Positions 13,691 through 64,000 of a DNA stretch of 64,000 bases are shown in pieces; the first letter of the stretch is position 1; every line of letters starts with the position of its first letter. The notes under the pieces were generated by a model. That model saw nothing but the letters and a program-made list of their open reading frames with translations, ran no database searches and was not told the DNA's origin. This stretch comes from Pseudoscleropodium purum (lineage: Eukaryota; Streptophyta; Bryopsida; Hypnales; Brachytheciaceae). The position numbers and the translations under genes were made by a program. The stretch lies in NCBI GenBank assembly GCA_963969395.1, contig OZ017797.1:40424001-40488000 (forward strand). The letters run 5' to 3'.

Positions 13691-15424
13691 CTTAATAATT
13701 TAATATTTTGAATCATTTTCTACTATTACCTACTTACTATTTTTTTCCTATTTGTTGTATAGTTCCAATAACGCAATATTATATACTTAACCCATGCAAT
13801 TGCAATAACACAATATTATATATGTTTTTCATTTATATTTTTTTCTCTTAAAATGCTTTAAAATTATAAAATTATATTTCTCATTTTAATTTTTTTCTTA
13901 TAAAAAATTCCAATTTATAATAATATAACCTATAAATGATATGATTTTATTTTTCCATCAAAATTTATGAAAAAAAAATATGAATAAGAAATATTTCTTT
14001 GACTAGCCAAAAATATGAAAATTTTATCTATCAATAATATAAAAGGAGAAATTCAGTTTAATAGTGGAATTTGACTTATAGATTTTTGCCAAAGGTATCT
14101 AGTGGATGTAAAAGATAAAATGATTAATTGAGAATTTCTTACACTAATTTGTAGTGTTATTTATACCTCTTGAAAGGATTTCAAATTAATTGGATTATTT
14201 TTGCTATTTTTACTTATTTACCTTTTACTTTTCGCTATGGAATTATAGCAATGACAATTTAATTTTTCATTAAAGAAACTAAAGTTTTTCATAGTATTAG
14301 ACAATTTATAGTTTCACATAATAAAAATATAGGATTGATATTTAAACACAATTTTATAGGCTCAATTTAGCTCAAATATAATGTTTGACTATTTGTCAAT
14401 GGATTTGGTCACGTAGGGATTAAAATACTAATATTTTGCATATTAGTATATTAATATAAGAATCAAATTAATGGTTATTTTTAAATTGATAATGTCTTAA
14501 ACAATTTAATACACTATTATCATCAAATCTTAAAAGTTGAAATAGTACAATTGCTACAAGAATGGAGATATATATGTACAAAAATATTGTATCTTTTATT
14601 CTAGAATATTGAGTTTTCCAATAATATAGTGCTTTTTATATTGCTTCGTGTATAATCATTCAAATGAACATTTGAGCATGGTTTCTAATTATAATAAATT
14701 GTTTAAATTTCTATTGGATCTTATTGGCAATTCAAAGAGTATTGTAACAATGGAATAGGGTCAAGGGAAATTAATTATTTAAAAAAATACCAAAAACAAA
14801 ATAAATTGAACAAGTGAAATTACTAAAATCAGCAAGAATTAAATCAATTGTTGAAAACCAAAAAATTAAGTGTTATTTGGAAAGTCCCAAATAGCCAAAA
14901 TACAGTCCAGAGCCTAGTACAATTATAGGTATTCAATACTCCTAGTACCAATCTATCATTTGAACATCTACCATCCAAAACATGTGACATTAAATCTTGT
15001 AGACAAAATGGGCTCCATAGGCTCAACTTACCTTAAGGAAAAACACAAGAATCTTTATTCTTCACACAATTTTCTTTTGCAAATTTGAATTCATATTAAT
15101 AATCAAAGACCTCATAATATCTTAATGAGGTCTAAAATACATGCTAGACAAAGCTCAAAATAGGGGATTTTTTTTTTTACTTTTACCCTTGGAGAACCCC
15201 CAAATTACCATGTTGGGCTTTTTTGTGGGTAAGATTTAATGTCTTGCATCCTAGACATTTTTTTATGGCAAAGTGGAGATATTGTTAGTACTTCATTGAT
15301 ATTTAGGGATCATGATGGGTAGAGAGTTTGTTTTTATAATGAATATCATTGTCCATCATGAATCTTTAAAGGGTATGGGATGATTTGAAGATAAGAATTT
15401 GACTTGTCATTGTCAAAATGTAAA
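13691..15424. other. AT-rich intergenic DNA with dispersed repeat copy 2
   Basis: Very AT-rich. Around 15045-15170 it holds the second copy of the dispersed repeat (AAATTTGAATTCATATTAAT ... CTCAAAATAGGGG). No gene was recognised. Confidence 0.5.
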
Positions 15425-31376: not shown

Positions 31377-36050
<4,674 letters not shown>

Positions 36051-48942: not shown

Positions 48943-49376
48943 TAGATTTATTACCAAAATATATTATTAGCCTTGGATTGAAGGGGAGGAGGCTTTCTAT
49001 CAAAAGAAGCTATCATGAGGAAGTTTGAGTTGCTATCTTATTTGAAGAAGAAGCCAATGCTATAGAAAAAGACCATTTGTAGTTCTATTATTGTTCTAGT
49101 AGTTGGATGGTGAAATTTATTTTTTAATTATACAATGTACTGTCAAGGGAGTTCACTAGATAAAGGATTTACTACCCATCTATGTTTGATGGGTATTTTA
49201 TGAAGGATATTTTTTTTGCACTAGCAATTTAAAGCATTGGAGAAATATATAATTTTGTTATTCTACCTTTTTGCACTAAATTTCAATTATTTATAAATTA
49301 TTGAATACATTTTATAGTAATACTATTGTACATTTTGTTTTCTCGCAACATTAAAATTTCTATTACAAGTTAAATA
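48943..49376. other. Polygalacturonase 3' flank
   Basis: Probable 3' untranslated region and spacer. 48963-49110 resembles 20484-20620. It ends at the presumed left terminus of the hAT-type element. Confidence 0.5.
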
Positions 49377-49480
49377 CAGGGTTGTCAAATCGGACACTTC
49401 AGGGTCACCGGACGTCCCGGACGGATGGACAAAACGGACGGATAGACGGACTTGTCCAACCCTAAGCGGACACTTCGGGC
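49377..49480. repeat. Presumed hAT left terminus with CGGAC repeats
   Basis: The terminal CAGGGTTGTCA is followed by GGACACTTC. CGGAC or GGACGG recurs at least six times within 80 bp, then GCGGACACTTCGGG. Short subterminal repeats of this kind are where hAT transposases bind. Confidence 0.5.
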
Positions 49481-49571
49481 AGGAAATTCTGCCCCTAATC
49501 AAAATTTTCCCTACTCCTGACCGGAAGTGTTTGACGTGGCCAGCCACGTTGCAATCAGCGCGCTGACGTAG

Positions 49572-49716
49572 AGGCGGGGACGTACTTAGGTTTGGGCGGG
49601 GACATCATGGTGAGGCGGGGACTTACTTTTGTCTGGGCGGGGACGTCATGATGAGGCGGGGACGTACTTTTGTCTGGGCGGGGACGTACTTCGGTATGGG
49701 CGGGGACGTATTCGTG
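49572..49716 (+). repeat. GGCGGGGACGTACT array A
   Basis: About seven copies of GGCGGGGACGTACT or close variants (GACATCATGG, GACGTCATG), spaced about 20 bp. It lies downstream of the hAT genes, near the presumed left end, and reads GGCGGGGACG on plus, as in array B. Very CpG-rich within AT-rich DNA. Confidence 0.85.
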
Positions 49717-50414
49717 TCTAGGCGTGTTTGGGGTTATTCTAAAGTCTTCTATATTATTTCCGAAAAGACAATGCTTTGCTGACCTTTTAATTACTCTACC
49801 TACTTTGATCAAAAAAGATATCTGAGTGAATGTTTTGGTGCCCCATTTGTTATCCTCTAAAGTAAAATACTTTAATTACCAAACCATTGTTAGTCACTAT
49901 TTATGGATGATCTCTTTTTTCTCCAAAGGACTACACAATTTTATTTCTTGTTTTAAAAAAAAATAGAAAGTGATTGCTTTTATGGCCCCTTGGGCTTTGG
50001 TTACCTTAACTCCTGCTTTTGATAGAAAAAAAAAAGAAGTAGTCAATGCTTACATACACCACTACTTTTATATTCCAATTATCTACAATTCTATGAATTC
50101 ATTAAATTATTCATTTCATGAGAAATTAATACATTTCACTTTCCTGAGTTTCCTCTTACAAAGTCATGGCTATGGACAAGATAATTCAAATGCATCACAC
50201 AACATCAAGCTACAAGCAATATATATACATGTTTCTTTGCGAAAAACACAAATAATCTGGGATTTCGTCCATACATAATCCGATAACATGACTATGAAAA
50301 TGAGACTTCCAGACTTTGTCAACTTGTGCTCCTGTCATATTGTTACCTCACAACTTACTACTCATTCTTTACACATAGGTCATTTTAAGAATTGCCTACA
50401 TGTCCTACGTGTGC
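49717..50414. other. Element interior downstream of the acidic ORF
   Basis: AT-rich, no gene recognised. It probably includes the 3' untranslated region of the hAT transcript. Confidence 0.45.
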
Positions 50415-51833
50415 TCATGGTTCGCCTACATCTTTGAAACGACTTGATCGGCGAACTGCTTGAGTAGAAGGGCCTGCTCGCTCAACATGGCGAATGAGCA
50501 AATCGTCGTCATCCGGGGCTTCGTCACAGTCCTCGTCGTACTCATCATCCCCGTCTGCATAATCTTCACTTCCAACATGTTCATCTCCGTCTGTTTGTTG
50601 ACCTTCAAACTCTGAGTTCTCATTGCGGACCTCCGTGATTCTATTTCCACCACTACGGTTCAACCGCAACATTTTGTGTCTTCTAGCATCTGGGTCCTCC
50701 GCATCAGAATTTATAACTGGGCCTCCAAGAATCACAAATGCTGGGATTGAGGATGTAGGTCCCGGAGTATAAGTCTGCAAAAATGGCAATACTTGTTGCT
50801 CAGCTAACCTGACTCCGACTCCACGATGCGGACGTTTGCGAGCTATTGACACTGTGTCTCCGTGTTCTCCATCATTGTTTCTTCCTCCACAACCACTACA
50901 ACCACCACGACCACCACGACCACCAGAATCGCGAGTAGTATATTGACCCACCGCATGGACTACAGTGCTTTCAGAGGGTCTACCATCTGCTCCGATATTG
51001 GGAGCATTATCCACTACGACATTTCCATCTCCCACTAAGCATAACCCTTCTTGAAAAGATTTGGGATTGGAATTTCCAGATATATTCGGAGAAGAATGTT
51101 GCCGAGGGGGCACAAACGTACGATGCTCTTGCATTGTACTAGGAATTGCTACAGAAGAGGGTGGATGGATACGATCGACTCCTCGAGCGCCTCCTCTGTT
51201 CCGTACACGTTGGACATCAAATAGCCTCAGAATATTACCAGTTGGTTCAATTATGTCGATGGTCTCGCTTGTCCTTGTATTTTCGAGGCTCGCTCTCAAA
51301 TGTCTATGTACATCTGCGTTGACGTTGTTAGGTCCGCCCAGCTTGTTGTCGCTTACAATCATTGGAGCATCCTCAATAGGCCCTTCATGGTCTAGAACTG
51401 TAGGGTTTGTGCCATTTCCTCCATTTCCACCATTTCCACCATTTTCATCATCTCTATTTTCACGATTGTTTTGAGGTGGAGGAATGTCATCATCATTGTC
51501 TTCATCGTTGTCGTTGTCGTCATTTTGAACATTGTCATCTCCAACTATGGCTTCATCCTCTTCTACAGGAAAAACAAAAGGATCTACTTCATTACCAATT
51601 TCATCTTCTTGTTCTTCCTGATGTATAGGAGATGGACTAAGACGAGGATTGGGAGCCCAAGGTCCCCAAGCTTCATGACGAATGTTGTCTTCCATATCAT
51701 CTTCTTCCCCGTAATAGTTTCTTGCTTCTTCGCGGTGGTCCATGTCTCGCCCCCAACCATGTAGGTTTGCTTGGGGTGCAGGTGGTGGCCGATTCGCTTC
51801 CATGTCGTCTTCTTCTTCTTCTGCCGCTAGCAT
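50415..51833 (-). CDS. Acidic low-complexity ORF 2 of the hAT element
   Basis: 472 residues from ATG 51833, overlapping the transposase stop by 7 bases (ATGCTAG). It has no recognised domain. It is very acidic (EEEEDD at the start, then DNDNDEDNDDD near residue 110, and an acidic C-terminal third). It has a GGN repeat (GGNGGNGGNG), an RGG-like run (RGGRGG) and a short conserved-looking block (LAEQQVLPFLQTYTPGP). The join to the transposase contains a direct duplication ATGCT-ATGCT. Removing one copy would make the two frames one, so this is most likely the former C-terminal extension of the transposase split by a 5-bp slip. Translation by re-initiation at the overlapping ATG is the alternative. 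The open frame over 472 codons argues that the split is recent or tolerated. Confidence 0.65.
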   Translation of the reverse strand: MLAAEEEEDDMEANRPPPAPQANLHGWGRDMDHREEARNYYGEEDDMEDNIRHEAWGPWAPNPRLSPSPIHQEEQEDEIGNEVDPFVFPVEEDEAIVGDDNVQNDDNDNDEDNDDDIPPPQNNRENRDDENGGNGGNGGNGTNPTVLDHEGPIEDAPMIVSDNKLGGPNNVNADVHRHLRASLENTRTSETIDIIEPTGNILRLFDVQRVRNRGGARGVDRIHPPSSVAIPSTMQEHRTFVPPRQHSSPNISGNSNPKSFQEGLCLVGDGNVVVDNAPNIGADGRPSESTVVHAVGQYTTRDSGGRGGRGGCSGCGGRNNDGEHGDTVSIARKRPHRGVGVRLAEQQVLPFLQTYTPGPTSSIPAFVILGGPVINSDAEDPDARRHKMLRLNRSGGNRITEVRNENSEFEGQQTDGDEHVGSEDYADGDDEYDEDCDEAPDDDDLLIRHVERAGPSTQAVRRSSRFKDVGEP

Positions 51834-53935
51834 AGCATCAAATTCTCGATGGCGGTTAGGTTCATCGACTGAATGGGTCCAAGTTCATCCGGATCCGAAT
51901 CCTCTGATACGTTGTTCAAATCATACCAACGAACTGGATCTGCTCCAGGTTTTTGACGAAGGACGCGACTGTTGGTATAAATGTACACCAAAGTCTCAGC
52001 CTTCTCCACTGCTAGACGATTTCTGTTCCTGTTGTGGACGAAGGAATACATACTGAAATTTCGTTCACAAGACGATGTTGAACATGTAAGGGCTAAAACA
52101 CGCTTCGCAATTTTGGACAAGAAGCAATCTCCAATTGCTTTCCACCATCGATGTGGAAGTAACTTTGCTTCCCGAATGTCCAGTGATGCGTCAGGACTAT
52201 AGGGTCCTTCACCCTCCACGTATTGCACATATTCTTGTATGACGTCATCAAAACGCACACCCACCACATCCTTCATTTTTTGAACAACCCGATGTAGTGC
52301 ACGAAGGGCCGTTCCATCTTCCCTTAGAGCTGGGTTGTCCTTGATATAAGGATTCAACAATGCCCCAGCATAGTGCACGTCGGTAAAGAACATGTTCCAC
52401 CTCTCCTCAAATGTCTCTTCCATGACCGTAGCTAGGTGATCCGGAAGGAAGAAAGGACCCTCTCTGAGCTGAAAAACATGTCGTCGCAACCTGTGCATTG
52501 TGATCCATGCCTTGCCCATAGCTGGTTCCCGTCCATCAAACACACACAAGGCCTTCAAAACGTCTTCCACAATGAACACGTAATTTTTACACCTCTGCCA
52601 AAATGTTAAATCATCAATGGTATTCAGTACGCACATTGCGTCCCTCCGGTTCTGCGGTCCGTTTTGCCTATTCCGAAGTGCTACAACATAATTTTGGACT
52701 CGTGGTTGTCCTCCCAACTGCTCCAAGACAGGTTTTAGTGTCACCAGTCGTTGCAACATGAGAAAGTGCGAAGCAAAACGAGTTTTAGCCGGTACTACAA
52801 GTTGCAAGTTTGGACTCAACTCCCGGAAAGTTGACATTGTTGCATGGTGATTTCTGATATAATTGCACACTGTCTTTGCCCTTGCTATTAAATCTTTGAA
52901 ATCCGGCAACTTGGCCCAATCTTCAAGCAACAAATCCAGTGCATGTGCCGCGCACCCTTGCTTAAAGATGTGCGGATATGTGCGAACTACGTCATCCATT
53001 GCACCGAGCATGTTACTCGCATTGTCTGTACAAATTTGATTTATATTATTGGGACCCACTTTCTCGATGAAGGTTTTCAATTGGTCTGCTATATAGACCA
53101 TTGTCTTGTTCTGCCCTGTAGTGTCGATGGACCCCATAAACACATCACCTGCGGGACATGACATCATGACATTCATGAGAGGCCGTCGATTTACATCGTC
53201 CCAACCATCCGTGCAAATCGTTACCCCATAATTTTTTACTGCAAAACTTGTTTTTGCAGATATCTCATTCTCAATCTGTAGCTTCTTCGGTTCAATCAAG
53301 TTTGTTCTCAATTGGTGGTACGAAGGTGGAGAATATTCAAATCGTGCCAAAGAAGTTGCCTTGACTGCCTCAATGAAAGCAGGATTTCTTGTAATGTTGA
53401 AGGGTACATTTGCCTCATAAAAAAAGCTTGCCCACTTTTCATCCAACTCTTTCCTCTTTGCAATGTTGAAGGCATCTATCATTTGTTGTTGATGTAATGA
53501 TCTTGATCTTGTGAAATTCGATGCTGCTTCATTGTTTGATGTTGGTAGTTGGTCTTCATTTTCATTTAGAACCTCCAAACGCCTTCTTCCCCCTCTTTCT
53601 CCTTCATTCCGAGCATGTTCGTTTATATTTTCCGTGGCAACATTTGGAGCTGCTACGGATGGATCGCTCGGAATTGATTCACCGTCGTGTGGGTCCTCCA
53701 AATTTGTGCGTTGTGGAACAAATCCAGCGCAGTTGGCAAATTTATGTCTCACCGCTCGAGGTATTTTGGAACACACTGCTCGCTCACTTTTTGCTTTATA
53801 AACGTAGTGTACAAAAGCACGCTCCCGTTTGTAAGCCGTTGTCCCGCCACAAAAGACACATGTGACTTTAGATCCATCAATAGAGAAATCATACCACGGT
53901 TCCCACTCTCTTGTGGTTTTTCGATTTGTCGCCAT
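51827..53935 (-). CDS. hAT transposase with BED finger and hATC domain
   Basis: A cut-and-paste transposase of the hAT superfamily, 702 residues from ATG 53935. A BED-type zinc finger lies at about residues 10-70 (CVFCGG, then HYVY and a later Cys). A DUF659-like region follows (FNITRNPAFIEAVKA). The RNase H fold has Asp243 (TDGWDD), Asp304 (ICTDNASNMLGA), a Cys/His pair (GCAAHALDLLLEDW) and TRFASHF. The C-terminal hATC dimerisation domain contains the catalytic Glu624 (STSSCERNFSM). All key residues are present and the frame is open, so this copy may be active. Upstream lie a TATA-like box (54159-54170) and array B. The stop overlaps the start of ORF 2. Confidence 0.92.
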   Translation of the reverse strand: MATNRKTTREWEPWYDFSIDGSKVTCVFCGGTTAYKRERAFVHYVYKAKSERAVCSKIPRAVRHKFANCAGFVPQRTNLEDPHDGESIPSDPSVAAPNVATENINEHARNEGERGGRRRLEVLNENEDQLPTSNNEAASNFTRSRSLHQQQMIDAFNIAKRKELDEKWASFFYEANVPFNITRNPAFIEAVKATSLARFEYSPPSYHQLRTNLIEPKKLQIENEISAKTSFAVKNYGVTICTDGWDDVNRRPLMNVMMSCPAGDVFMGSIDTTGQNKTMVYIADQLKTFIEKVGPNNINQICTDNASNMLGAMDDVVRTYPHIFKQGCAAHALDLLLEDWAKLPDFKDLIARAKTVCNYIRNHHATMSTFRELSPNLQLVVPAKTRFASHFLMLQRLVTLKPVLEQLGGQPRVQNYVVALRNRQNGPQNRRDAMCVLNTIDDLTFWQRCKNYVFIVEDVLKALCVFDGREPAMGKAWITMHRLRRHVFQLREGPFFLPDHLATVMEETFEERWNMFFTDVHYAGALLNPYIKDNPALREDGTALRALHRVVQKMKDVVGVRFDDVIQEYVQYVEGEGPYSPDASLDIREAKLLPHRWWKAIGDCFLSKIAKRVLALTCSTSSCERNFSMYSFVHNRNRNRLAVEKAETLVYIYTNSRVLRQKPGADPVRWYDLNNVSEDSDPDELGPIQSMNLTAIENLMLC

Positions 53936-54158
53936 CACAACTTACAAGTTGGAACTCCTCACTTGTGCTTGTATTGTCTTCTACAACTTTGTACCTGTAA
54001 AAGTAGTTAGCGTTGGTTCCCTACTTGAACTAATTTTTACATCACCTCAGCCGAGAACCAAGGCCGCTTTCCACCCAATAAACTCTATCAAGGAGCTCTG
54101 AGAGGTCCGAGAATGATGTGGTCCAGGGGAAAACGTGCCTTTAGTTCTGCCTACTCGT

Positions 54159-54170
54159 CCTTATATACTC
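54159..54170 (-). promoter_or_regulatory. TATA-like box of the hAT transposase
   Basis: GAGTATATAAGG on minus, about 220 bp before the transposase ATG and directly beside array B. Confidence 0.65.
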
Positions 54171-54200
54171 CCTCCTGGTGGCTGGTAGAACTCCACGTAA

Positions 54201-54985
54201 GGGCGCGGACGTACTATACAAGGGCGGGGACGTACTTGTCAGGGCGGGGACGCTAGGGCGGGGACTCAGGGACTCCTGACTCCCGCACTCCCGACTCCCG
54301 ACTCCCGCCCCAGAAGGCGTTCGGGCGAAGACGTCAGGGCCGGGACGTACTTGACAGGGCGGGGACGCTAGGGCGGGGACTCAGGGACTCCCGACTCCCG
54401 CCCCAGAAGGCGTTCGGGCGAAGACGTCAAGGCGGGGACGTACTTGTCGGGGCGGGGACTCAGGGACTCCCGACTCCCGCACTCCCGCCCCAGAAGGCGT
54501 TCGGGCGAAGACGTCAGGGCGGGGACGTACTTGTCAGGGCGGGGACGCTAGGGCGGGGACTCAGGGACTCCCGACTCCCGACTCCCGCCCCAGAAGGCGT
54601 TCGGGCGAAGACGTCAAGGCGGGACGTACTTGACAGGGCGGGGACTCAGGGACTCCCGACTCCCGCACTCCCGACTCCCGCCCCAGAAGGCGTTCGGGCG
54701 AAGACGTCAAGGCGGGGACGTACTTGTTAGGGCGGGGACACTAGGGCGAGGACTCAGGGACTCCCGACTCCCGCACTCCCGACTCCCGCACTCCCGCCCC
54801 AGAAGGCGTTCGGGCGAAGACGTCAGGGCGGGGACGTACTTGTCAGGGCGGGGACTCAGGGACTCCCGACTCCCGCACTCCCGATTCCACGCGTCAAGGC
54901 GTTCGGGCAAGGACTTCAGGGCGGGGACGTTGGGGCGGGGACGTATTTTTGTATGGGCGGGGACGTAGTCACGGGGACGCTAGGC
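54201..54985 (+). repeat. GGCGGGGACGTACT array B, complex GC-rich tandem repeat
   Basis: About six units of roughly 90-125 bp. Each holds GGGCGGGGACGTACTTG, a GGCGGGGACTCAGGGACTCC block, variable runs of CGACTCC/GCACTCC, and CCAGAAGGCGTTCGGGCG, then AAGACGTCA. GGGGACTCAGGGACTCCC is itself partly palindromic. Read along the transposase gene the motif is AGTACGTCCCCGCC. Many ACGT cores (bZIP-type sites) and CpG sites are present. Confidence 0.9.
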
Positions 54986-55449
54986 GGGGGAGAGATTCAA
55001 ATCAGTTTTGGGTTTCCCTCCTCAAAACCTTCGAGGGAAGACATTTCAAATACTTGTACTTGCACTCTACAGCTGCCCCCCATTTTTGCAGATTTCCTAA
55101 GATATGAAATATTCAAGCATTAATTACTCATTCACTACATCATTCTAAATATCAAAGATAGATGCTACAAAAAATGCGGTTTTAGTATTTAAGAAATTGT
55201 GTATAACAAATCAATTGAAGAAACGTTGAATTCGTCAAAAATGGGAAACATCAAATAAATTACGCGTGAATTGGAAAAAAATGACAAAGAGAATTGCAAC
55301 AACATTAAGGATTGGACAAAAATATGTAGAATCCATAGAGAGACATTGCAACTGGTTTTTTAAAAGGAAGGCTATACATTTAAAAAGTGGCACAAAAATG
55401 GAAGGAAGAAATGAGAGAATAAAAAAATGGTAGAATATATGGGTGTAAG
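54986..55449. other. AT-rich spacer
   Basis: No gene recognised. Lies between array B and the minisatellite. Confidence 0.5.
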
Positions 55450-56390
55450 AAATGAACGGTTTATCGAAATGAAGGTACATGAAGAAGTTAGAGAACCAAA
55501 AAAAATAACTACGAGATGCATCACATGGAGGAAGACATATAAGTTACAGAATCAAATGAAAGAAATTTCGGGATAAAAATGTGAGGTGAGACAGATGATT
55601 TAGAGAATGAAATGAAAAAAATAATCGAATAATCATGTAAGGGGAGATAAATAATTCAGAGAACCAAATAAAAAAATACTGAAATAATCATATGAAGGTA
55701 GATAAATAAGTTAGACAAACAAATGGGCAAAAAATTGGAATAACCGTATAGGGGGGGGGGAGATAAACAAAAGAGAGACTCAAATAAATAACAAATTGGA
55801 CTAACCAAGAAAGGGGACATAAACAAAAGAGAGACTCAAATAAATAAAAATTTGGATTAACCATATGAGGGGTTATAAACAAAAGAGAGACTCAAATAAA
55901 TAAAAAATTGGATTAACCATATGAGGGGTTATAAACAAAAGAGAGACTCAAATAAATAAAAAATTGGATTAACCATATGAGGGGACATAAACAAACGAGA
56001 GACTCAAATAAATAAAAAATTGAATTAACCATATGAGGGGACATAAACAAACAAGAGACTTGAATAAATAAAAAATTGGATTAACCATATGGGGGGACAT
56101 AAACAAACGAGGGACTCAAATAAATAAAAATTTGAATTAACCATACAGGGGGACATAAACAAAAGAGAGACTTGAATAAATAAAAAATTGGATTAACCAT
56201 ATGTGGGGTTATAAACAAAAGAGAGACTCAAATAAATAAAAAATTGGAATAATTTAACGACGGGATATAAGCTATAGAAACAAATGAAGAAAATAACGGA
56301 ATTACCATATATGGGGATATAAAAATGTTTGAGAATCAAATGAAAATTTGTTGGACTCATCATACAAGGGTTGAAATTGAATGAAATGTG
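55450..56390. repeat. Minisatellite, about 57-bp unit
   Basis: About nine well-kept units between 55760 and 56260, each with AAACAAAAGAGAGACTCAAA, then TAAATAAAAAATTGG, ATTAACCATATGAGGGG. More diverged units extend on both sides. AT-rich and non-coding. A run of ten G lies near 55752. Confidence 0.88.
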
Positions 56391-56432
56391 AGCATTTTTT
56401 ATTGTGCTGTGAAATGGTTCAGGATTTAGGCT

Positions 56433-56455
56433 AAGGGTTTAGGGTTTAGGGTTTA
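56433..56455 (+). repeat. Interstitial telomere repeat, TTTAGGG x3
   Basis: AAGGGTTTAGGGTTTAGGG, then TTTA: about three plant telomere units, too few to be a chromosome end. Confidence 0.8.
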
Positions 56456-56644
56456 ACAATTTTTTTTATTTATCCTTTTAACTATTAGTAATGTTAATTT
56501 ATTTTTCTCTTGGATGATGGGAGCTTCACGGATCTTTGACAACTCACATGAAATAAAAGATGAGTGACATTAAATGCAAGGTACAAGGTAAATCTTCCAA
56601 AATCTTTTTTTTTTATTCTAATTTTCTCCACCTACCACCAGCGA
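56456..56644. other. Short spacer before array C
   Basis: AT-rich, with no recognised element. The sequence changes sharply to CpG-rich at about 56640. Confidence 0.5.
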
Positions 56645-56790
56645 CGAGTACGTCCCCGCCTTGGACAAGTACGTCCCCGCCCAGGGCAGAAACGTCCCCG
56701 CCTATTTTGAGTACGTCCCCGCCCTGACATCGAGTACGTCCCCGCCCTGACAGCGCGGACCAGCAGTATATATGCGCGTCCCCGCCCTTT
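56645..56790 (-). repeat. GGCGGGGACGTACT array C (reverse orientation)
   Basis: Copies of AGTACGTCCCCGCC at about 56647, 56670, 56711 and 56735, plus the shorter ACGTCCCCGCC near 56691 and GCGTCCCCGCC near 56777. The orientation relative to the downstream gene equals that of array B relative to the transposase. Confidence 0.88.
56765..56776 (+). promoter_or_regulatory. TATA-like box of the RING-H2 gene
   Basis: AGTATATATGCG about 130 bp before ATG 56903, inside the end of array C. Confidence 0.6.
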
Positions 56791-56902
56791 TAGCAACTGC
56801 CTCACAAACTCCCGTGTGCTCCACCTCTAAGCTGGTTGCCTAGGCGTCCTTGTGAGGTCCTTTTTATATTACGCTCTTTACTTCAACCCAAACCGCCGTG
56901 TG

Positions 56903-59011
56903 ATGGACCCTGCAGTGAAGATGACGAAGGCCGAACGAGACAGAACAAGAAAGAGGACTGGACAGAAGCAACGGAAACGGATGAACGTTTTAAACAATCC
57001 GTTGAAGTTGGCATTCAGGGGATGGGAAGATGAACCTGATCCATGGAATATGGACACTTGTGCCAATTACATTGAATGGTGCCACATTGGCAAGTCTTTT
57101 CCCATAGCCCGGCACAACTATCACCGTCGCTTCCACAAGGCCAATTTGAGGTTCTGTACCGACGACGCATTTAAGAATCGTTGTATTGAAGTCTATCAAG
57201 TGTTATACGATAGACCAACGGTGGAACGCAATGAAATTAACCTTTTCATTGCAAGAGGGGTACATGCAGAGGTCAAGCTAGGGAAGAGGGTGGATTGGTC
57301 AACCATCAAGGAGAGAGGTTCCAAAATAAAAGTTCTTCATTCCACCAATGGATTGATTCCAATGGGTGTACGAAGGTACCCTAACGGCGGATTGGGGTTC
57401 GTGAGGCCACTAACTGAGTTGCCCCCTAACACATATGTAACCAGTGACTCTTCTCCTGATGATGACTCCGACGGGACGCGCACTCCACCGCGTGCTCTAG
57501 GTAATAGAGTGGAACATCGGGTGAAAAGAAGAAGGGAGAAGGAAATGAGCACAGAAGAAGTTGTCTCGGAAGCAGTTTTAAATGACCGACTACAAGATTC
57601 AATGGAAGTAGAAGATCTTCGGCTACCAAATGAAGCTGTCGAAAGTGAAGAAGATACAATCCCAGCCTTGAAGAGTAACCTCAACGAAAAAAGAAAGGAA
57701 ATTCAAAACTTGTTAGAAGACACTCACAAGTTGAAGGTCGAGATCCAACAAAAGAACGATGTCATTGACCGACAGTCCCAAGAAATTGCCCGCCTTACAA
57801 GAGCTCTACAAGCTGGTAATGTATTCAGCGAAGGCCACGTTGGTGAAGGTCTGCACAAAGTTGGTCACCCATCTCACTTTACTGTAGGTGCCGAAGAGCT
57901 AGAAGTGCTTCGTGGAAAAAATGTCGAGCTCCAGAAACATTTGGATGCATTGGTGTCACAGTATTATGAGTGGAAGTTGGCGTGTGTATTTACTGTGGAC
58001 AAGAACCGACAAATGGGAGCAGAATTGAAGAAAATTGCCAATCATTATGCAGTGCACAATCAAGAACGTGTTTTTGGCTTAACATCATGGGAACTAATGG
58101 ATGAGTTATTCTCGGACAAAATGGAGACCAAAGTTGGAGTTGGAAATCAGACCATCATTGATTGGCCTCAAAATGGGTGGGATTTTGAAAATGAAAGGTC
58201 TGCCCATGTGACTAAACCGAGTACATTGTTGTGGCCAAAACCACCAAGCTTTGTGTTCGATGGTACACAATGTCCAATGTGTTTGAATGCCTTTGGCCCC
58301 GAAGGTGGATTCCAATTGGGCACATGTGAGCATTTGTATCATCCAATTTGTTTGATTGCATTAATGGTCAATCGAAGGCGTTGCGTACTTTGCAAGGCTC
58401 CTTTCCATGAGCGTTTGTACAAGCTATTTGGCTTGTACGAGCATATGCCGCCAAGCTGGGAATTTGATGTAATGAATGCTCCAGATCATCCACAGAAATG
58501 GGGAGAAGACCTCATTTGGAATTGGCGTTATAAGTATCACTCTTTAGAGGTCTCTGGGCTTTCCAACAACTGGGGATGGGAATCAAACCCAACTGAAGTT
58601 GTTCGTGTGTGCCACAATTTGATTAAAGGCACGGATGCTATTAGTGAAGGAAGAAGAAATTTCTTCTACCAATGCTTCAATGGCTATTGGGATGGAAATG
58701 AGCATCAATTTCAATTTGGACCACATCCAAAGGGTTGGATTTGGGGCAACGACGGACAACGTATCACCGATGACGACGGAGTTCAACTTGTGGATCCTGG
58801 TGAATATGTACCTCCTACCGCACGAGAAAGAGTGATGATGTCTGAATCTGAATGGAGAGAGCAATTCAAAAATGATGCTGTAGACTTCTTGCTAGAAGAA
58901 CACAGTCCGGGAACTCGTATAGCTCTTCAAGAACTTCAACAATCTCAAATTCTGAGGGGCCTACTGGAGGAGGATGGACCAGCAAGACGAACACACGGTG
59001 CAATGCGGTGA
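56903..59011 (+). CDS. RING-H2 protein of unknown family, repeat-associated
   Basis: A single-exon ORF of 702 residues from ATG 56903. This start matches the paralogue at 62063 (MDP/MDT, then MTKxERD). Residues 1-165 are a basic, well-conserved N-terminal domain of unknown fold (TKAERDRTRKRTG, CANYIEWCHIG, RFHKANLRFC, NLFIARGVHAEV, GKRVDWSTIKERGSKIK). An acidic/basic linker follows, then a coiled coil at about 255-305 (LNEKRKEIQNLLEDTHKLK). The RING-H2 finger lies at about 457-498 (CPMC, then CEHLYHPIC and CVLC), so it probably works as a ubiquitin E3 ligase (inference). The C-terminal part is rich in Trp and Gly (SNNWGWESN, PKGWIWGND), unknown. The gene is GC-richer than its flanks, and its upstream array and TATA box mirror those of the hAT transposase. 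It could be an element-borne accessory gene or a captured host gene. Confidence 0.8.
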   Translation: MDPAVKMTKAERDRTRKRTGQKQRKRMNVLNNPLKLAFRGWEDEPDPWNMDTCANYIEWCHIGKSFPIARHNYHRRFHKANLRFCTDDAFKNRCIEVYQVLYDRPTVERNEINLFIARGVHAEVKLGKRVDWSTIKERGSKIKVLHSTNGLIPMGVRRYPNGGLGFVRPLTELPPNTYVTSDSSPDDDSDGTRTPPRALGNRVEHRVKRRREKEMSTEEVVSEAVLNDRLQDSMEVEDLRLPNEAVESEEDTIPALKSNLNEKRKEIQNLLEDTHKLKVEIQQKNDVIDRQSQEIARLTRALQAGNVFSEGHVGEGLHKVGHPSHFTVGAEELEVLRGKNVELQKHLDALVSQYYEWKLACVFTVDKNRQMGAELKKIANHYAVHNQERVFGLTSWELMDELFSDKMETKVGVGNQTIIDWPQNGWDFENERSAHVTKPSTLLWPKPPSFVFDGTQCPMCLNAFGPEGGFQLGTCEHLYHPICLIALMVNRRRCVLCKAPFHERLYKLFGLYEHMPPSWEFDVMNAPDHPQKWGEDLIWNWRYKYHSLEVSGLSNNWGWESNPTEVVRVCHNLIKGTDAISEGRRNFFYQCFNGYWDGNEHQFQFGPHPKGWIWGNDGQRITDDDGVQLVDPGEYVPPTARERVMMSESEWREQFKNDAVDFLLEEHSPGTRIALQELQQSQILRGLLEEDGPARRTHGAMR

Positions 59012-59491
59012 CTTCGTTTGGACTCCAATGAAGATGATATTCCAATGTCCGGGACGCATGACACCGAGGCCGGTACAAGTGGTACCGCAAATAGCCTAGT
59101 TCATTTGGACTAAGTGCACTTTTGCGTACTTCAAGCATTTGGAAAAATGTAAATATATAGCTATGTAAAGGCTGCTAGTTTTTATCTTTTTAGCTACTAT
59201 TATATGTGTGGAACTTTGTTTGATTACATTGTTGACTTTGTCCAATTTTTCAATACCATATTGTGCGACACATATGAAATAAAAATGCTCTTTTTATGAC
59301 CTACGTATTACTTTCATTTTTAAAGTTTAAGGTGCATACAACTGGAAATGATTTCTTGGTAATGCAACTTTAGAATGTTTTTGGTTTCTTGAATCCCTGA
59401 GTCCCAGCCCAACGTCCCCATCCAAGTGTCCAAAGTCGAATCATGACACCTTTGAAGGAGTTTGGGGGTTTGGGAGTTATGAATTCAAAAA
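59012..59491. other. 3' flank of RING-H2 gene with hAT-like terminus
   Basis: AT-rich 3' region with AATAAA near 59278. At 59395-59454 it contains CCCTGAGTCCCAGCCCAACG, then CCAAGTGTCC, and ends GACACCTTTG. Read inward from 59454 on minus this is CAAAGGTGTCA, then GGACACTTGG, similar to the left hAT end (CAGGGTTGTCA, then GGACACTTCA). It may be the right end of an element. Confidence 0.45.
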
Positions 59492-60417
59492 GTCCCATTG
59501 TTCCTAAGGGAGACAAATGCATTTTTGGGCAAGTATGTACGGGCTGAATTTTCGTCCAGATTTTTCACAATGCCTTTTTTCAGAGAAAAAAATTGATAAG
59601 CTTCATGGAAATATAATTTTTTTTCAATAGGTGTATGGGAACAAAAATTATGCCCAAATAAGCTCAAAATAGTGGACAAGAGGCAATTCGGTTAGCCAAA
59701 AATTTTTCGGCATACTTTGAATTTTTTCTGCGGAATTTTTTTTCTCATAGATTAAATTTTTGTCTATCTGGAAAGCTTTGATTAATTTCATTTGGATTTG
59801 TTATGAGGAAGTTATGGACATTCTAGTTTTTCTGGCAATTACAGCATGTTCTTGGAAAAAACGACTTGCACGATTCATTTGTCAATGCATGCTTTGCATT
59901 TTTTCCAAAAAAAATAAATTTGCGTGGTTTGATTTACTTTGTAGAACAATCTTCCTATCGGATTAGTGCATTTTAATTCCATCTACCCCATATTGATATT
60001 TTAGGTTTTCATTTTGTCTAGTACATATTTCTAGTTACCAATTGTTTTAAGAATGAAAATTAAGTTTTCATTTTTTTTTTTTTTTCTTTGGACTCTGAAC
60101 TCTAATCTCCACTATGAAGATTTAAAGCTCGGAGCTTTGTAGTGCAAAAATTTTAAGTTGAAAATGTTCAAAGTCAAAAAATCCAGTTGCTCAATGTGTG
60201 GAAAAGCTTGCTTTTTCTACTTTAAACGCAAATATCTTGCAATTTATTCAATCACAATTTTTGGTTTTTTTCCCACACTAGTTTATACTAGTCAGGTGTA
60301 ATATCCTACGGTTAGATGTGAAAATAAATGAATTTCAATATTTTCTTAGTCTTTGCTATAGAAATGGCAGTTTTGAGTGTTTTTGGGCTAGATAAGGCCT
60401 TGGCCCTTTAGGGATTA
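59492..60417 (-). mobile_element. TTAACCCC-family element, inverted 0.9-kb copy
   Basis: An inverted relative of 17375-18294. Its right end on plus, GGCCTTGGCCCTTTAGGGAT, is the inverse of the family start, preceded by GGCAGTTTTGAGTGTTTTTG as in that copy. Its left end GTCCCATTGTTCCTAAGGGA, then GACAAATG, matches the far end of that copy. Non-coding. Confidence 0.72.
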
Positions 60418-61148
60418 CACTTTAACTCACAAAAAACGGGAGCTATTCAATTCATAAGGAATGTGCATACAATACAAATACACACCTAAAAAATTAAAAT
60501 GGCACTGTATACATATGAAATGTCTAAAAGTTTGCAAAAGAGCAAAATGAATTTCTTATGAATGCAAAAGTTTGACAATTAGATCACAAAATAGAATTAA
60601 AAAAGTAAAAAAAGTAAAAATTATATTGAAAGACACATTTCAATGTACACATTGCTGGATTAGAATTCACGCCCTAATTAATATTTATATGAATTATGTA
60701 ATTTAATTTTTTTTCTAAATTTTTTATTTATTGCATTAACACCTAATGGACCAGGGTTATTTTTTAAAAAGACATTGTGCAAAAAGCCAATTTTTGGGTA
60801 TGTTATTAAAAATTCAAAAATTCAAAAAGAATTGTTTCATAAAAAATTCAACCAAACATCCTTGAAGTTCAGTACTTTACAAAAGTATGGTCAAGATATG
60901 AGATGTTTAAGTAAAAATAAGTATGAACCCTAAACCAACACAATAAATGTATATGAAATGAAGCAATCCAATTTTGCAAGTGACACGTCTTTAGCCAAAA
61001 ATAATTTTTGTATTTTGGATGGGTAATACCGTAGAATATGAATATATTGATAAAAATTGTCTCATTACATGAGCACAACTGTACAGAACTAAAAAAGAAC
61101 ATGAAAATTTAAAAACCTCGAGATAGCTATGTAATTGGATATTGCTAA
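60418..61148. other. AT-rich spacer with partial TTAACCCC-family end
   Basis: At 60737 TTAACACCTAATGGACCAGG resembles the family end, without a confirmed partner. No gene recognised. Confidence 0.45.
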
Positions 61149-62063
61149 CTAATTCCTTGATGTAGCAAGCTCTAAAGCATGTTCCAATCGTGCAATTTCT
61201 TGTCTGAGATTGTTGATGACTTGGTTCTTTTCTTCCAACACCGCCCTCGACGTGTGCTTGTAATCGTGCAGACGATTAATTTCTTCGTGTTTTTCAGCAA
61301 GTTCGTTCCTCAAGGCCGAGATTGTATCATATACATTTCTTCTATTTTCAGTGGGTTGTGCGTAAACTTCCTCGTGCACTTCATTTTGGATTTCATGTTG
61401 AGGTTGAGGATCTCGAGCATATTGTAGGGCCCTCCTCCGCCTACCACGTTGTTCCCCTTTGGCCGTTAGAGGACGCGGTGGAGTACGTGCTCCATCTGAA
61501 TCGTCATCCGTCGTAGAATCCTCGGTGTCATCATGAGCTGTAGGGGGATTTACGATTGTCTTCAAGTGCCCCAACCCACCTTTGGGAAACGTTAGAACAC
61601 CCATTGGAATTAGTCCATTGCTTGGATGAGGAACTTTTATTTTGGAACCTCTCTCCTTGATGGTTGACCAATCCACCCTCTTCCCTAGCGTGACCTCTGC
61701 GTGTACTCCTCTTGCAATGAAAAGGTGAACTTCATTGCGCTCCACCTTCGCTCTATTGTAAAGGACTTGGTAGACTTCAATGCACCGATTTTTGAATGCA
61801 TCATTCATGCAATATCGCAAATTTGCTTTGTGGAAGTATTGGTGGTAGTGGTGTCGTTCTTCAGGAAAGGCCTTGTCGATGTGACACCACTCAATGTAAT
61901 CCGCACACGTGTCCATGCTCCACGGGTCCTGTACTTCCTCCCACCCCTTGAAAGCAATTTTTAATGGATTTCGTAAAACATGCATCCGCTTCTTCTGTAC
62001 CTGTCCACTTCTCTTTCTTGTTTTATCTCGCTCGTTTTTCGTCATCCGTGGTGATGTGTCCAT
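61149..62063 (-). CDS. Paralogue of the RING-H2 protein lacking the RING
   Basis: 304 residues from ATG 62063 (MDTSPRMTKNERDKTRKRSG). It is closely similar to residues 1-180 of the protein at 56903-59011: CADYIEWCHIDKAF, YFHKANLRYC, NAFKNRC-like and LFIARGVHAEV motifs, then GKRVDWSTIKERGSKIK, which is identical. It keeps the acidic linker (DDTEDSTTDDDSDGARTPPR) and the coiled coil (LRNELAEKHEEINRL) but stops right after it (ELATSRN). The RING and the Trp-rich C-terminus are absent. It could be a truncated copy or a functional short form acting through the N-domain and coiled coil (inference). Its 5' leader also resembles that of the long gene (CCACCTCTGAGCTGGTTG versus CCACCTCTAAGCTGGTTG). 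This is stronger evidence for a common origin than coding similarity alone. Confidence 0.8.
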   Translation of the reverse strand: MDTSPRMTKNERDKTRKRSGQVQKKRMHVLRNPLKIAFKGWEEVQDPWSMDTCADYIEWCHIDKAFPEERHHYHQYFHKANLRYCMNDAFKNRCIEVYQVLYNRAKVERNEVHLFIARGVHAEVTLGKRVDWSTIKERGSKIKVPHPSNGLIPMGVLTFPKGGLGHLKTIVNPPTAHDDTEDSTTDDDSDGARTPPRPLTAKGEQRGRRRRALQYARDPQPQHEIQNEVHEEVYAQPTENRRNVYDTISALRNELAEKHEEINRLHDYKHTSRAVLEEKNQVINNLRQEIARLEHALELATSRN

Positions 62064-62190
62064 CGCACGATGTTTGTGCAACAAAAATGACGTGGAATGT
62101 GATTTAGGGCCCACTGAGACGCCCAGACAACCAGCTCAGAGGTGGCGCACGAGGGAGTTCAGAGGGCAGAAAGTGAGGAGGCGGGCACGG

Positions 62191-62202
62191 CCTTTTATAC
62201 CG
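62191..62202 (-). promoter_or_regulatory. TATA box of the short paralogue
   Basis: GGTATAAAAGGC on minus, about 130 bp before ATG 62063 and directly beside array D. Confidence 0.72.
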
Positions 62203-62221
62203 GGGAGCGCGGACGTCAAGG

Positions 62222-62325
62222 CAGGGGCGGGGACGTACTCGCATCCAGGGCGGGGATGTACTGGGTATAGGCGGGGACGTACTCGCGACAGGGCGGGGAC
62301 GTACTCGCGGGGTGGGCGGGGAAGT
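62222..62325 (+). repeat. GGCGGGGACGTACT array D, shared by two divergent genes
   Basis: Four copies of GGCGGGGAYGTACTSG plus a final GGGCGGGGAAG, spaced about 22 bp. It lies between the TATA boxes of the minus-strand short paralogue and the plus-strand kinase-like gene, so it could act as a bidirectional promoter. Confidence 0.88.
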
Positions 62326-62340
62326 GGTTTTTGCCTTCCC

Positions 62341-62348
62341 TATATATT
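62341..62348 (+). promoter_or_regulatory. TATA-like box of the kinase-like gene
   Basis: TATATATT about 150 bp before ATG 62495, just past the end of array D. Confidence 0.55.
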
Positions 62349-62494
62349 TTTTTTTTGCTCATTTTGACATTGCCAGGCCTTCACTTTTAGCCTCACGTGT
62401 TAGTTCGCGATTTGCGGCCTATACAGTGAGTCGGAGGGTGCACAGGTGTGGCGCTTTATTTGTACGGGAGATTTTCGAATTTTTTTCGAATACT

Positions 62495-64000
62495 ATGGCT
62501 GCATCAGGAAGTGATTCGACGGGGAAACGCCCAATGGCTTGGGACTTGGATGTGCCCATCGAAGAAATAGTTGTTGCTGAGCAGAGCACTCAACCGTCAT
62601 CATCTTCGAATCCGACATCATCAAGTCATAAGAAAGTAAAACCGGCGCGACCCGATTGGCCTCCGATAGAGTACACACAAAAGGCACGATCAATAGGTGT
62701 GGATTTTTATCGACGACGAAGTTTAGCAATGTTGGAGAGGGAGTACGTCAACAAGAACGAAAATGGTTACCATGAACTCTTGGAGAAGCTACGTTACGAG
62801 ATTGAAGTGACTATGGAATCATCTGAAGACTTCAACAATTACCAAGATTATTGGTTAGCTTCGGAGTGGCTTGAAAAAACTGTGAAGGCTTTGGCAACAA
62901 ATATCGTGACGCAATGGCGTTACGATGCTAATAAAAAGGAGAATAGAACTGACTGGGATGTTGTAGACGAGGAACTTTTTGAAAAACTATCGATGATCGA
63001 GACATTTTGCCAAGGTTTTTCAAAATCACGGGCACGAGGAAAATTACCATGGAAGGAATCGATGGAGAATGCTGTATTGACGCACTGCGTTAGTGGAACG
63101 TTTCAGTGGCTTGACAGCTCAATAAAAGTTGTACAGATGTCGGGATTTACAGCAGAAGGAGGGTATGGGACTGTGATGAAGGTGCACATCACAAGACTGA
63201 ACAACATGCCAATGTGGATGGATTTTGCCGAGAAACGTCTCAAAGAAGAGAATCAGAAGAAAAAACGTTTGGAAATCATAAATGAGGCTGGAGGATGTCC
63301 CGTGAAGCATCCAGGCATCATCAGACTTTCGTATTTGAATCCCAAAACAATGGCCGGTTATTCGTTGTGGTGGAATGGTGGATCTTTGGCAAATTTTTGG
63401 AAGAATATGGACAACAAGGTTTCTGAGGTGCTGGAAATCGAAGACATTGTTAAGCAACACGACTCAGAGCTGAGCAAAGCACAACTGGAATGGGTTGCAA
63501 CGTATAGGAAAAATCGCGTTGCATTGGCGTTGTCCTTGCTTGTGACAGTCTAGAAATGTTACAATGAGAACTACATGCACAACGATTTATCTCCATCCAA
63601 TGTGTTGCTACATTTTGACCCTTGGAAGAAGAATAGAATATACATTGGTATATGTGATTGGGGAATATCAAGCCAAGTTGTGGAGAAGGAGCCATCAAAA
63701 TATGGCTATGACAGCATGGAAAAGCTAGCGAAAGTGAAGCAGGTGAAAAAATTTGTTGCTCCAGAATTGTTCTATGTATACGGAAGTATAGGTTCAGAGA
63801 ACTCGCTGGAAGTGATGCAACGAAGGCATCTGTATAGTGTAGCAGCTGATACATATTCCGCAGGATGGATAGCACAAAAGATTTGAAATGAGGAGTGGGA
63901 TTCCTAGTACTTCGTTAAAGAAAAATGCATGAATTATGCATTACTTAAAACACATCTTCAAAGCTTGCAGAAGGAAGATGTGAATGATCGGGCAACTATA
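62495..64000 (+). pseudogene. Kinase-like gene with in-frame stops, runs off the window
   Basis: Starts at ATG 62495 (MAASGSDSTGKRPMAWDLD) with a ~200-residue N-terminal region of unknown type (WPPIEYTQKARSIG). A protein-kinase-like domain follows: Gly loop EGGYGTV near 63160, a possible VAIK-like DFAEKRL, WWNGGSLANFW in place of the hinge, catalytic loop YMHNDLSPSNVLL (HND for HRD, Asp and Asn kept) near 63575-63610, CDWGISS (DWG for DFG) and VAPELF. A TAG at 63551 lies just before the catalytic loop, and TGA at about 63884 and TAG at about 63905 follow, so it is broken. The 52-base gap from the nearest GT is too short for a normal intron around the first stop. The 3' end lies beyond 64000. 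I do not recognise the kinase family. The promoter-side array is shared with the short RING paralogue. Confidence 0.72.

What the first reader, a model, noticed from the sequence alone, without database searches (positions are those of the whole stretch)
49377..64000. One GC-rich motif array next to TATA boxes marks the 5' ends of four unlike mobile-type genes
GGCGGGGACGTACT (or its inverse) is tandemly repeated before the hAT transposase (54201-54985), the RING-H2 gene (56645-56790), its short paralogue and the kinase-like gene (both 62222-62325). In each case a TATA-like box lies beside it. The motif also recurs at the far hAT end (49572-49716). For the hAT, RING and short-paralogue genes the orientation relative to transcription is the same (AGTACGTCCCCGCC). 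Unlike proteins sharing one regulatory repeat suggests one mobilising system that carries or captures genes, or a regulon driven by an element-encoded or bZIP factor.
Basis: partly seen in the sequence, partly recalled or inferred. Interest (0 to 1): 0.85.

Follow-up and report, generated by a model that had tools for sequence, protein, structure and literature searches.

The report
Four-gene hAT transposon with motif arrays
The repeated 14-letter motif sits near both ends and before every gene of a single large jumping gene (a hAT transposon of about 16.5 kb) that carries a transposase, two related accessory genes and a protein kinase, which suggests a transposon that runs its own small gene-control circuit.

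Summary
Window 49377-64000, plus 1,869 bases beyond the window, is ONE hAT transposon of 16,493 bp (TIR CAGGGTTGTCAAA, 8-bp target duplication GTTAAATA). The hAT, RING, short-paralogue and kinase genes are its four genes. The genome holds 30 left and 30 right ends (up to 3 mismatches), which pair into 30 elements of 15.8-34.3 kb with none left over; 24 of 30 have a perfect 8-bp duplication. The 12 elements whose interior I read have the same five motif arrays in the same order and orientation: both subterminal regions, transposase promoter, RING promoter, shared short-paralogue/kinase promoter. On contigs C1-C40 all 99 exact motifs lie inside elements; 355 other places were not listed. A TATA box lies 12-35 bp below the nearest motif in 35 of 36 gene-by-element cases. 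In the window copy spacers differ between arrays as much as random sequence, so the motif itself is what is kept. Most likely an element-encoded DNA-binding protein (the transposase through its CCHC finger, or the coiled-coil accessory protein) binds all five arrays, for transposition and for control of the element's genes, as VANC does for VANDAL elements. Binding and expression are untested. New variant of a known kind.

The parts
49369..49376 (.). 8-bp target-site duplication GTTAAATA (left copy; the right copy follows the element beyond the window)
49377..64000 (+). the hAT element, part inside the window; it ends 1,869 bases beyond the window (G000:C41:40489869, L010:7869); whole length 16,493 bp
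49377..49389 (+). left terminal inverted repeat CAGGGTTGTCAAA
49573..49712 (+). array 1, left subterminal motif array (6 motifs at <=2 mismatches), motif reads inward
50415..53935 (-). hAT transposase gene (DUF659 + hAT dimerisation region, conserved CCHC positions near the N-terminus); frameshifted here into ORFs of 702 and 472 aa; open over 1167 aa in another copy
54162..54167 (-). TATATA, 232 bases before the transposase ATG, 34 bases below the nearest motif
54202..54969 (+). array 2, transposase promoter array: motif embedded in tandem repeats of 87-116 bp; copy number varies between elements
55548..56252 (.). unrelated A+T-rich 56-bp tandem repeats between the transposase and RING promoters
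56647..56746 (-). array 3, RING-gene promoter array (4 motifs at <=2 mismatches; spacing mostly 21, some 40)
56767..56772 (+). TATATA, 136 bases before the RING-gene ATG, 20 bases below the nearest motif
56903..59011 (+). RING-finger gene: N-terminal domain without a Pfam family, coiled coil, RING; 702 aa here, 736 aa in two of seven copies checked
61149..62063 (-). short paralogue, 304 aa: the N-terminal domain and coiled coil of the RING protein without the RING
62194..62199 (-). TATAAA, 136 bases before the short-paralogue ATG, 26 bases below the nearest motif
62226..62305 (+). array 4, between the divergent short-paralogue and kinase genes (spacings 21-23, some 46)
62341..62346 (+). TATATA, 154 bases before the kinase ATG, 35 bases below the nearest motif
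62495..64000 (+). protein-kinase gene (runs past the window end); in-frame stops in this copy; 525 aa and open in two of seven copies checked

Best explanation
This is one large, four-gene hAT transposon family with uninterrupted gene frames. Shown: its ends, target duplications, gene set, five motif arrays, 30 paired copies. Inferred: the GGCGGGGACGT(ACT) arrays are binding sites of a DNA-binding protein that the element itself encodes. Near the two ends the arrays serve as subterminal repeats that gather the transposase; at the three internal places, just above the TATA boxes, the same protein or an element-encoded partner (the coiled-coil/RING protein and its RING-less paralogue) switches the element's four genes together, most likely as an activator that counters silencing. 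RING and kinase would then act on host proteins or on the regulator itself (ubiquitination, phosphorylation).
For: Element: 13-bp TIR; 8-bp duplications perfect in 24 of 30 copies and with one mismatch in 4 of 30; transposase with DUF659 and hAT dimerisation region and invariant hAT-like residues (D243, D304, C328xxH331, E624; signature recalled). 30 left and 30 right ends pair completely. Arrays: same five, same order and strand in 12 of 12 elements read at the internal places; left array in 30 of 30; at least one right-end motif in 29 of 30. In the window copy all motifs lie outside the four gene ORFs. The motif is kept while spacers differ: in the window copy between-array identity of the seven bases after the motif is 0.28, random 0.29, within-array 0.46; each array has its own spacings (22/19; 20-22, 14 and about 100; 21/40; 21-23/46; 18). 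That is what binding-site selection gives. TATA between nearest motif and ATG in 35 of 36 cells, at 20-35 bp in 34 of 36; chance per place about 0.025. CCHC positions C26, C29, H43, C55 conserved in the transposase family; the Hermes BED domain is a CCHC finger that binds subterminal repeats (PMC10368747, passages). VANC proteins bind element-specific short motifs in dense same-orientation arrays in non-coding regions (PMC5735166, passages). Silencing pressure is likely: 320 of 366 single-copy changes in the four genes are C>T or G>A, in CG, CHG and CHH contexts.
Against: No binding, expression or methylation data. The motif's own CpGs are changed to TG or CA at least as often as coding CpGs (46 of 606, against 163 of 3105), so the arrays show no protection from methylation decay. 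Pfam calls no zf-BED in the transposase. [quoted passage not shown] The tips carry GGACGG-rich repeats that the arrays lack, so the transposase could bind only the tips and another factor the arrays. Open frames run mechanically across array 4 (61915-62367 in the window; in copy C40b in frame with the kinase), so that array's non-coding status is inferred. 355 of 455 motif places were not listed, so exclusivity outside C1-C40 is inferred from counts. The 20-35 bp TATA interval was chosen after seeing the data, and copies are not independent.
Confidence: 0.65

Rival explanations
1. The arrays are bound by a host transcription factor (for example one that reads GTAC or ACGT cores, such as SBP or bZIP proteins; recalled), which the element uses for tissue- or stress-specific expression; no element-encoded regulator exists.
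For: Position 12-35 bp above TATA boxes is that of an ordinary upstream activating sequence; the motif contains ACGT and GTAC cores (sequence).
Against: It does not explain why the same motif, inward-facing, lies near both ends in 29 of 30 copies, nor why the exact motifs on C1-C40 occur only in this family (99 of 99).
Confidence: 0.2
2. The internal arrays are leftovers: the element is a fusion of smaller hAT elements, each of which brought its own subterminal array, and the internal arrays do nothing now.
For: Arrays of the same motif lie at the ends and inside; composite hAT elements occur (recalled).
Against: No TIR (<=2 mismatches) lies inside 7 of 9 elements, and the other two, both longer copies, have one each, more than 1 kb from an array. 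Each internal array sits just above a TATA box. Spacers and spacings differ between arrays, so they are not recent copies of one end.
Confidence: 0.1
3. The arrays act only in transposition: internal sites help the transposase to bridge or loop a 16-kb element, and the promoter position is a by-product of the arrays lying between genes.
For: hAT transposases can need several subterminal sites (PMC10368747, passages); 30 of 30 paired copies are at least 15.8 kb, none a short deletion derivative.
Against: A near-constant distance to a TATA box at all four genes is not expected from a looping role.
Confidence: 0.1
4. The motif is a common satellite of this genome that happens to lie here.
For: 455 exact matches in the genome.
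Against: One match of the reversed control; 99 of 99 places on C1-C40 inside elements; no exact motif in the fetched flanks of 9 elements.
Confidence: 0.02

Closest known systems
hAT superfamily (Ac/Ds, Hermes, Tol2)
   Same: 8-bp target duplication, short TIR, transposase with hAT dimerisation region, conserved CCHC positions, subterminal repeats
   Different: 16.5 kb and four genes instead of 4.6 kb and one transcript for Ac; arrays also at the internal promoters; no short non-autonomous copy found with these end patterns, whereas 903 Ds-related elements are counted in maize B73 (PMC3260210, passages)
VANDAL elements with VANC anti-silencing proteins (Arabidopsis)
   Same: multi-gene DNA transposon; short element-specific motif in dense, same-orientation, expanding and contracting tandem arrays in non-coding and upstream regions (PMC5735166, passages)
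   Different: VANDAL is a Mutator-type element (PMC13317346, passages); hAT domains here; binding and demethylation unproven here
En/Spm (CACTA) with TnpA
   Same: an element protein that activates the element, correlated with DNA demethylation (told in PMC10398659, abstract and passages); binding to subterminal repeats recalled
   Different: other superfamily: CACTA ends and 3-bp duplication (recalled)
ToxhAT and Starships (fungal cargo transposons)
   Same: large transposon with non-transposase genes; ToxhAT is called a 14-kbp transposon (PMC12506042, start of abstract in a listing)
   Different: there the extra genes are host-adaptive cargo (listing); here the four genes are the same in the 9 copies read in full and share one motif

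Membership tests
hAT superfamily | 8-bp target-site duplication | tested here: met
   perfect in 24 of 30, one mismatch in 4 of 30, none recognisable (6 of 8 differ) in 2 of 30
hAT superfamily | short terminal inverted repeats beginning CAGGG (recalled as typical) | tested here: met
   13 bp at both ends of 9 of 9 elements with 0-1 mismatch
hAT superfamily | transposase with hAT C-terminal dimerisation region | tested here: met
   PF05699 5.1e-09 and DUF659 1.8e-36; both in 22 of 22 aligned members, the query and 21 of 73 hits; weak match to Hermes structures, E 3e-4
hAT superfamily | catalytic D/D/E with CxxH (signature recalled) | tested here: met
   D243, D304, C328xxH331 and E624 are invariant in the 22 aligned sequences; their assignment to catalysis is inferred
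hAT superfamily | N-terminal BED zinc finger | tested here: inconclusive
   C26, C29, H43, C55 conserved but Pfam zf-BED not called in any of 22 at E <= 0.01
hAT superfamily | transposition | not testable with these tools
   target duplications show past insertion only
VANDAL/VANC system | Mutator-type transposase | tested here: not met
   hAT domains instead
VANDAL/VANC system | element-specific motif in dense non-coding arrays | tested here: met
   specificity complete for C1-C40 only
VANDAL/VANC system | element protein binds the motif and removes methylation | not testable with these tools
   no binding or methylation data
Pack-type gene capture by transposons | cargo is a copy of host gene fragments and differs between copies | tested here: inconclusive
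   all four genes align in 9 of 9 elements read in full; search for host parents of the kinase gene did not complete
Starship | tyrosine recombinase captain (recalled) | tested here: not met
   no such domain among Pfam matches of the element's proteins

The most novel reading that the evidence does not exclude
A gene-rich hAT lineage that encodes its own regulatory circuit: one element-specific cis-motif joins both ends and all promoters, read by an element-encoded factor that counters silencing, with a RING ubiquitin-ligase-like protein, its RING-less antagonist and a protein kinase as host-directed effectors. The whole set is needed in cis, which would explain why 30 of 30 paired copies are full length and no deletion derivative was found. 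It would be the hAT counterpart of VANDAL/VANC, evolved independently.
Probability: 0.3. Interest if true: 0.85.

Novelty: new variant of a known kind. Interest (0 to 1): 0.62.

Why it matters
hAT transposons are usually thought of as one transposase gene plus many short passengers. Here a hAT lineage carries four genes, two of them signalling-type (RING, kinase), with one cis-motif joining transposition ends and promoters. If an element protein reads that motif, it is an independent case of sequence-specific self-regulation or anti-silencing by a DNA transposon, best known from VANDAL and Spm, and a compact motif-plus-protein pair that can be tested directly. Relatives of all three protein families are in public sequence data: best near-full-length hits 53% (RING), 61% (transposase) and 59% (kinase) identical; whether those relatives are joined in four-gene elements could not be seen.

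Tried and rejected
Satellite: rejected for C1-C40. Separate small mobile units: rejected, one pair of ends around all four genes. Bacterial genomes: three weak kinase-like matches of 22-33% identity, not pursued. Purifying selection inside the genome: not visible for transposase and RING (non-synonymous to synonymous ratio, scaled by sites, of one copy against six others: 1.73 and 1.00; short 0.83; kinase 0.41), which fits dead copies decaying; selection was judged only from conservation among foreign relatives. Arrays spared from methylation decay: not so. Fold of the RING protein as a whole: low confidence, pTM 0.34; its best structure matches are RING domains but at E about 0.5. Fold of the short paralogue: mean pLDDT 81, no match. 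Host identification: a NAC-domain gene and named charophyte relatives of the transposase point to a land plant or close kin; eleven large contigs hold about 312 of 313 Mb; a moss is my guess, untested. Rfam: no match in the window. Listing of all 455 motif places and search for host parents of the genes: not answered by the tool.
Full report
CHECK. The 14-mer is present as described: 23 matches with up to two mismatches in the window, 0.04 expected. In the whole 313-Mb genome there are 455 exact matches (218 + 237) against one for the reversed control. The 100 listed places come in clusters about 16-20 kb long.

WHAT IT IS. I fetched the window's surroundings and eight other clusters. The shared unit begins at window 49377 and ends 1,869 bases past the window. 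It starts and ends with CAGGGTTGTCAAA in inverted orientation and is flanked by the 8-bp direct repeat GTTAAATA. The other copies have the same ends and other 8-bp duplications: perfect in 8 of these 9 elements, one mismatch in the ninth. A 40-base left-end pattern finds 30 places and a 36-base right-end pattern 30 places at up to 3 mismatches, none with reversed controls. They pair without remainder into 30 elements, median 16,558 bp, 15,815 to 34,301 bp. End pieces of the 21 others give perfect duplications in 16 of 21, one mismatch in 3, none recognisable in 2. So 24 of 30 are perfect. These are hAT insertions. Eight copies are 97.2-97.9% identical to the window copy over pieces longer than 1 kb.

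GENES. Four, each a single open frame in at least one copy; one of the seven copies checked has all four open. Transposase on the minus strand, 1167 aa where open, with DUF659 and the hAT dimerisation region and a long low-complexity tail; the query and 21 of its 73 hits were aligned and 22 of 22 have both domains. RING protein on the plus strand, 736 aa: a conserved N-terminal domain, coiled coil and RING; of 21 aligned members (19 of 31 hits, the window protein and the short paralogue, which has no RING) 15 match zf-RING_2 at E <= 0.01, the window protein below the curated cut-off. Short paralogue on the minus strand, 304 aa: the same N-terminal domain and coiled coil without RING, 56% identical where aligned. 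Kinase on the plus strand, 525 aa: Pkinase 3.6e-10; the query and 23 of 51 hits were aligned and 24 of 24 match it; K247, HND 362-364, N369, DWG 388-390 and APE 422-424 are conserved, so it looks catalytically able. One of the 51 kinase hits is the window's own protein. In the window copy the transposase is frameshifted and the kinase has stops.

ARRAYS. Nine elements read in full and three more read at the internal places and ends, 12 of 12, have the same five arrays: left subterminal (motif inward), transposase promoter, RING promoter, short/kinase divergent promoter, right subterminal (motif inward). All 30 left ends have at least two motifs, and 29 of 30 right ends at least one, at up to 3 mismatches; the C42 copy shows none on the right within about 420 bases, and one C47 copy only one. 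The fetched flanks of the nine elements hold no exact motif. The listing stops at 100 places; its 99 places on contigs C1-C40 lie in the seven elements there and equal the 15 + 84 exact motifs counted in them, so exclusivity is complete on that part (about 29% of the genome, taking the list to be in contig order). For the rest, 455 divided by 14.0 per element (126 in 9) predicts 32.5 elements and 30 were found: consistent, not proof. Core of the motif, from 303 instances: GGCGGGGACGT, then a looser ACT.

WHY THE MOTIF AND NOT THE REPEAT UNIT. The five arrays have different spacings and, in the window copy, the seven bases after the motif are no more alike between arrays than random sequence of the same composition (0.28 against 0.29; within arrays 0.46). 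A motif kept in unlike surroundings at five places is the mark of a binding site. Spacings of 21-23 bp, about two turns of the helix, would put neighbouring sites of arrays 1 (in part), 3 and 4 on one face; the right array has 18.

PROMOTERS. Between the nearest motif and the ATG lies TATATA or TATAAA in 35 of 36 gene-by-element cells: at 34, 20, 26 and 35 bp for transposase, RING, short and kinase, with one cell at 12 and one without. The chance of such a box 20-35 bp below a random point in the element's non-coding part inside the window is 0.022-0.025, so four of four is unlikely by chance; the interval was chosen after the fact and copies are not independent.

AGAINST A PURELY NON-CODING ARRAY 4. 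A mechanical 150-aa ORF runs across array 4 in the window, and in copy C40b the open frame of the kinase extends upstream through it (711 aa). The TATA box between array and kinase ATG makes me read the array as promoter, but this is inference.

SILENCING. Of 366 changes private to one of nine copies in the four genes, 320 are C>T or G>A, spread over CG (126), CHG (82) and CHH (112) contexts. This looks like the trace of cytosine methylation, so the host probably silences the family. The motif's CpGs are changed at least as often as the genes' (46 of 606; 163 of 3105), so nothing suggests protection of the arrays; the motif figure counts only instances with up to 3 mismatches.

MECHANISM. Shown: one element, its ends, its genes, its arrays, their place relative to TATA boxes, a decay pattern of the methylation type. 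Inferred: an element-encoded protein binds the arrays. Candidates are the transposase, whose N-terminus has conserved C26, C29, H43, C55, as the CCHC BED finger of Hermes reads subterminal repeats (PMC10368747, passages), and the coiled-coil proteins. Of 38 GGACGT words in the window copy 30 lie in the arrays, 4 in the tips (one palindromic GGACGTCC near each end, counted on both strands) and 4 elsewhere; this slightly favours one reader for tips and arrays, while the tip-specific GGACGG repeats speak for a separate one. Whether binding activates, de-silences or represses is open; I favour activation against silencing, by analogy to VANC and TnpA (PMC5735166, passages; PMC10398659, abstract and passages).

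KNOWN OR NEW. Literature searches listed no title or abstract start that describes a multi-gene plant hAT with RING and kinase genes; many subscription papers are not in that library, and only listings and a few passages were read. Membership in hAT is firm; likeness to VANDAL/VANC is functional only.

Noticed in passing
genome G000, 30 element intervals: No short deletion derivative or solo end turned up with these end patterns (<=3 mismatches): all 30 paired elements are at least 15.8 kb. hAT families usually have many short passengers.
   Followed up: partly
G000:C45:9243607-9277907 and C47:19614558-19643675: Two copies are swollen to 34.3 and 29.1 kb, presumably by nested insertions; interiors not read.
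   Followed up: no
element C40f about 13529 and C41b about 13995: Two longer copies hold an extra internal TIR-like sequence with 2 mismatches, perhaps a nested, more distant hAT relative.
   Followed up: no
G000:C48:646389-662665 and G000:C49:5080114-5096075: These two elements have paired ends but no recognisable target duplication (6 of 8 bases differ), as after recombination between copies.
   Followed up: no
window 55548-56252: A second, A+T-rich 56-bp tandem repeat of about nine units lies between the transposase and RING promoters; role unknown.
   Followed up: no
window 61915-62367 (+); element C40b 12932-15067: An open frame crosses motif array 4; in copy C40b it is in frame with the kinase (711 aa), so an N-terminally extended kinase is conceivable.
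   Followed up: no
window 1769-2437 (-) and 31377-32048 (+): Host genes: a NAC-domain (NAM) protein and a Sec23/Sec24-type exon, which point to a land plant or close kin.
   Followed up: partly
RING and short proteins, residues about 20-170: A well-predicted, mostly helical domain (pLDDT mostly above 90 over residues 31-130 of the short paralogue) with no Pfam family and no solved-structure match, aligned across 32 sequences.
   Followed up: partly
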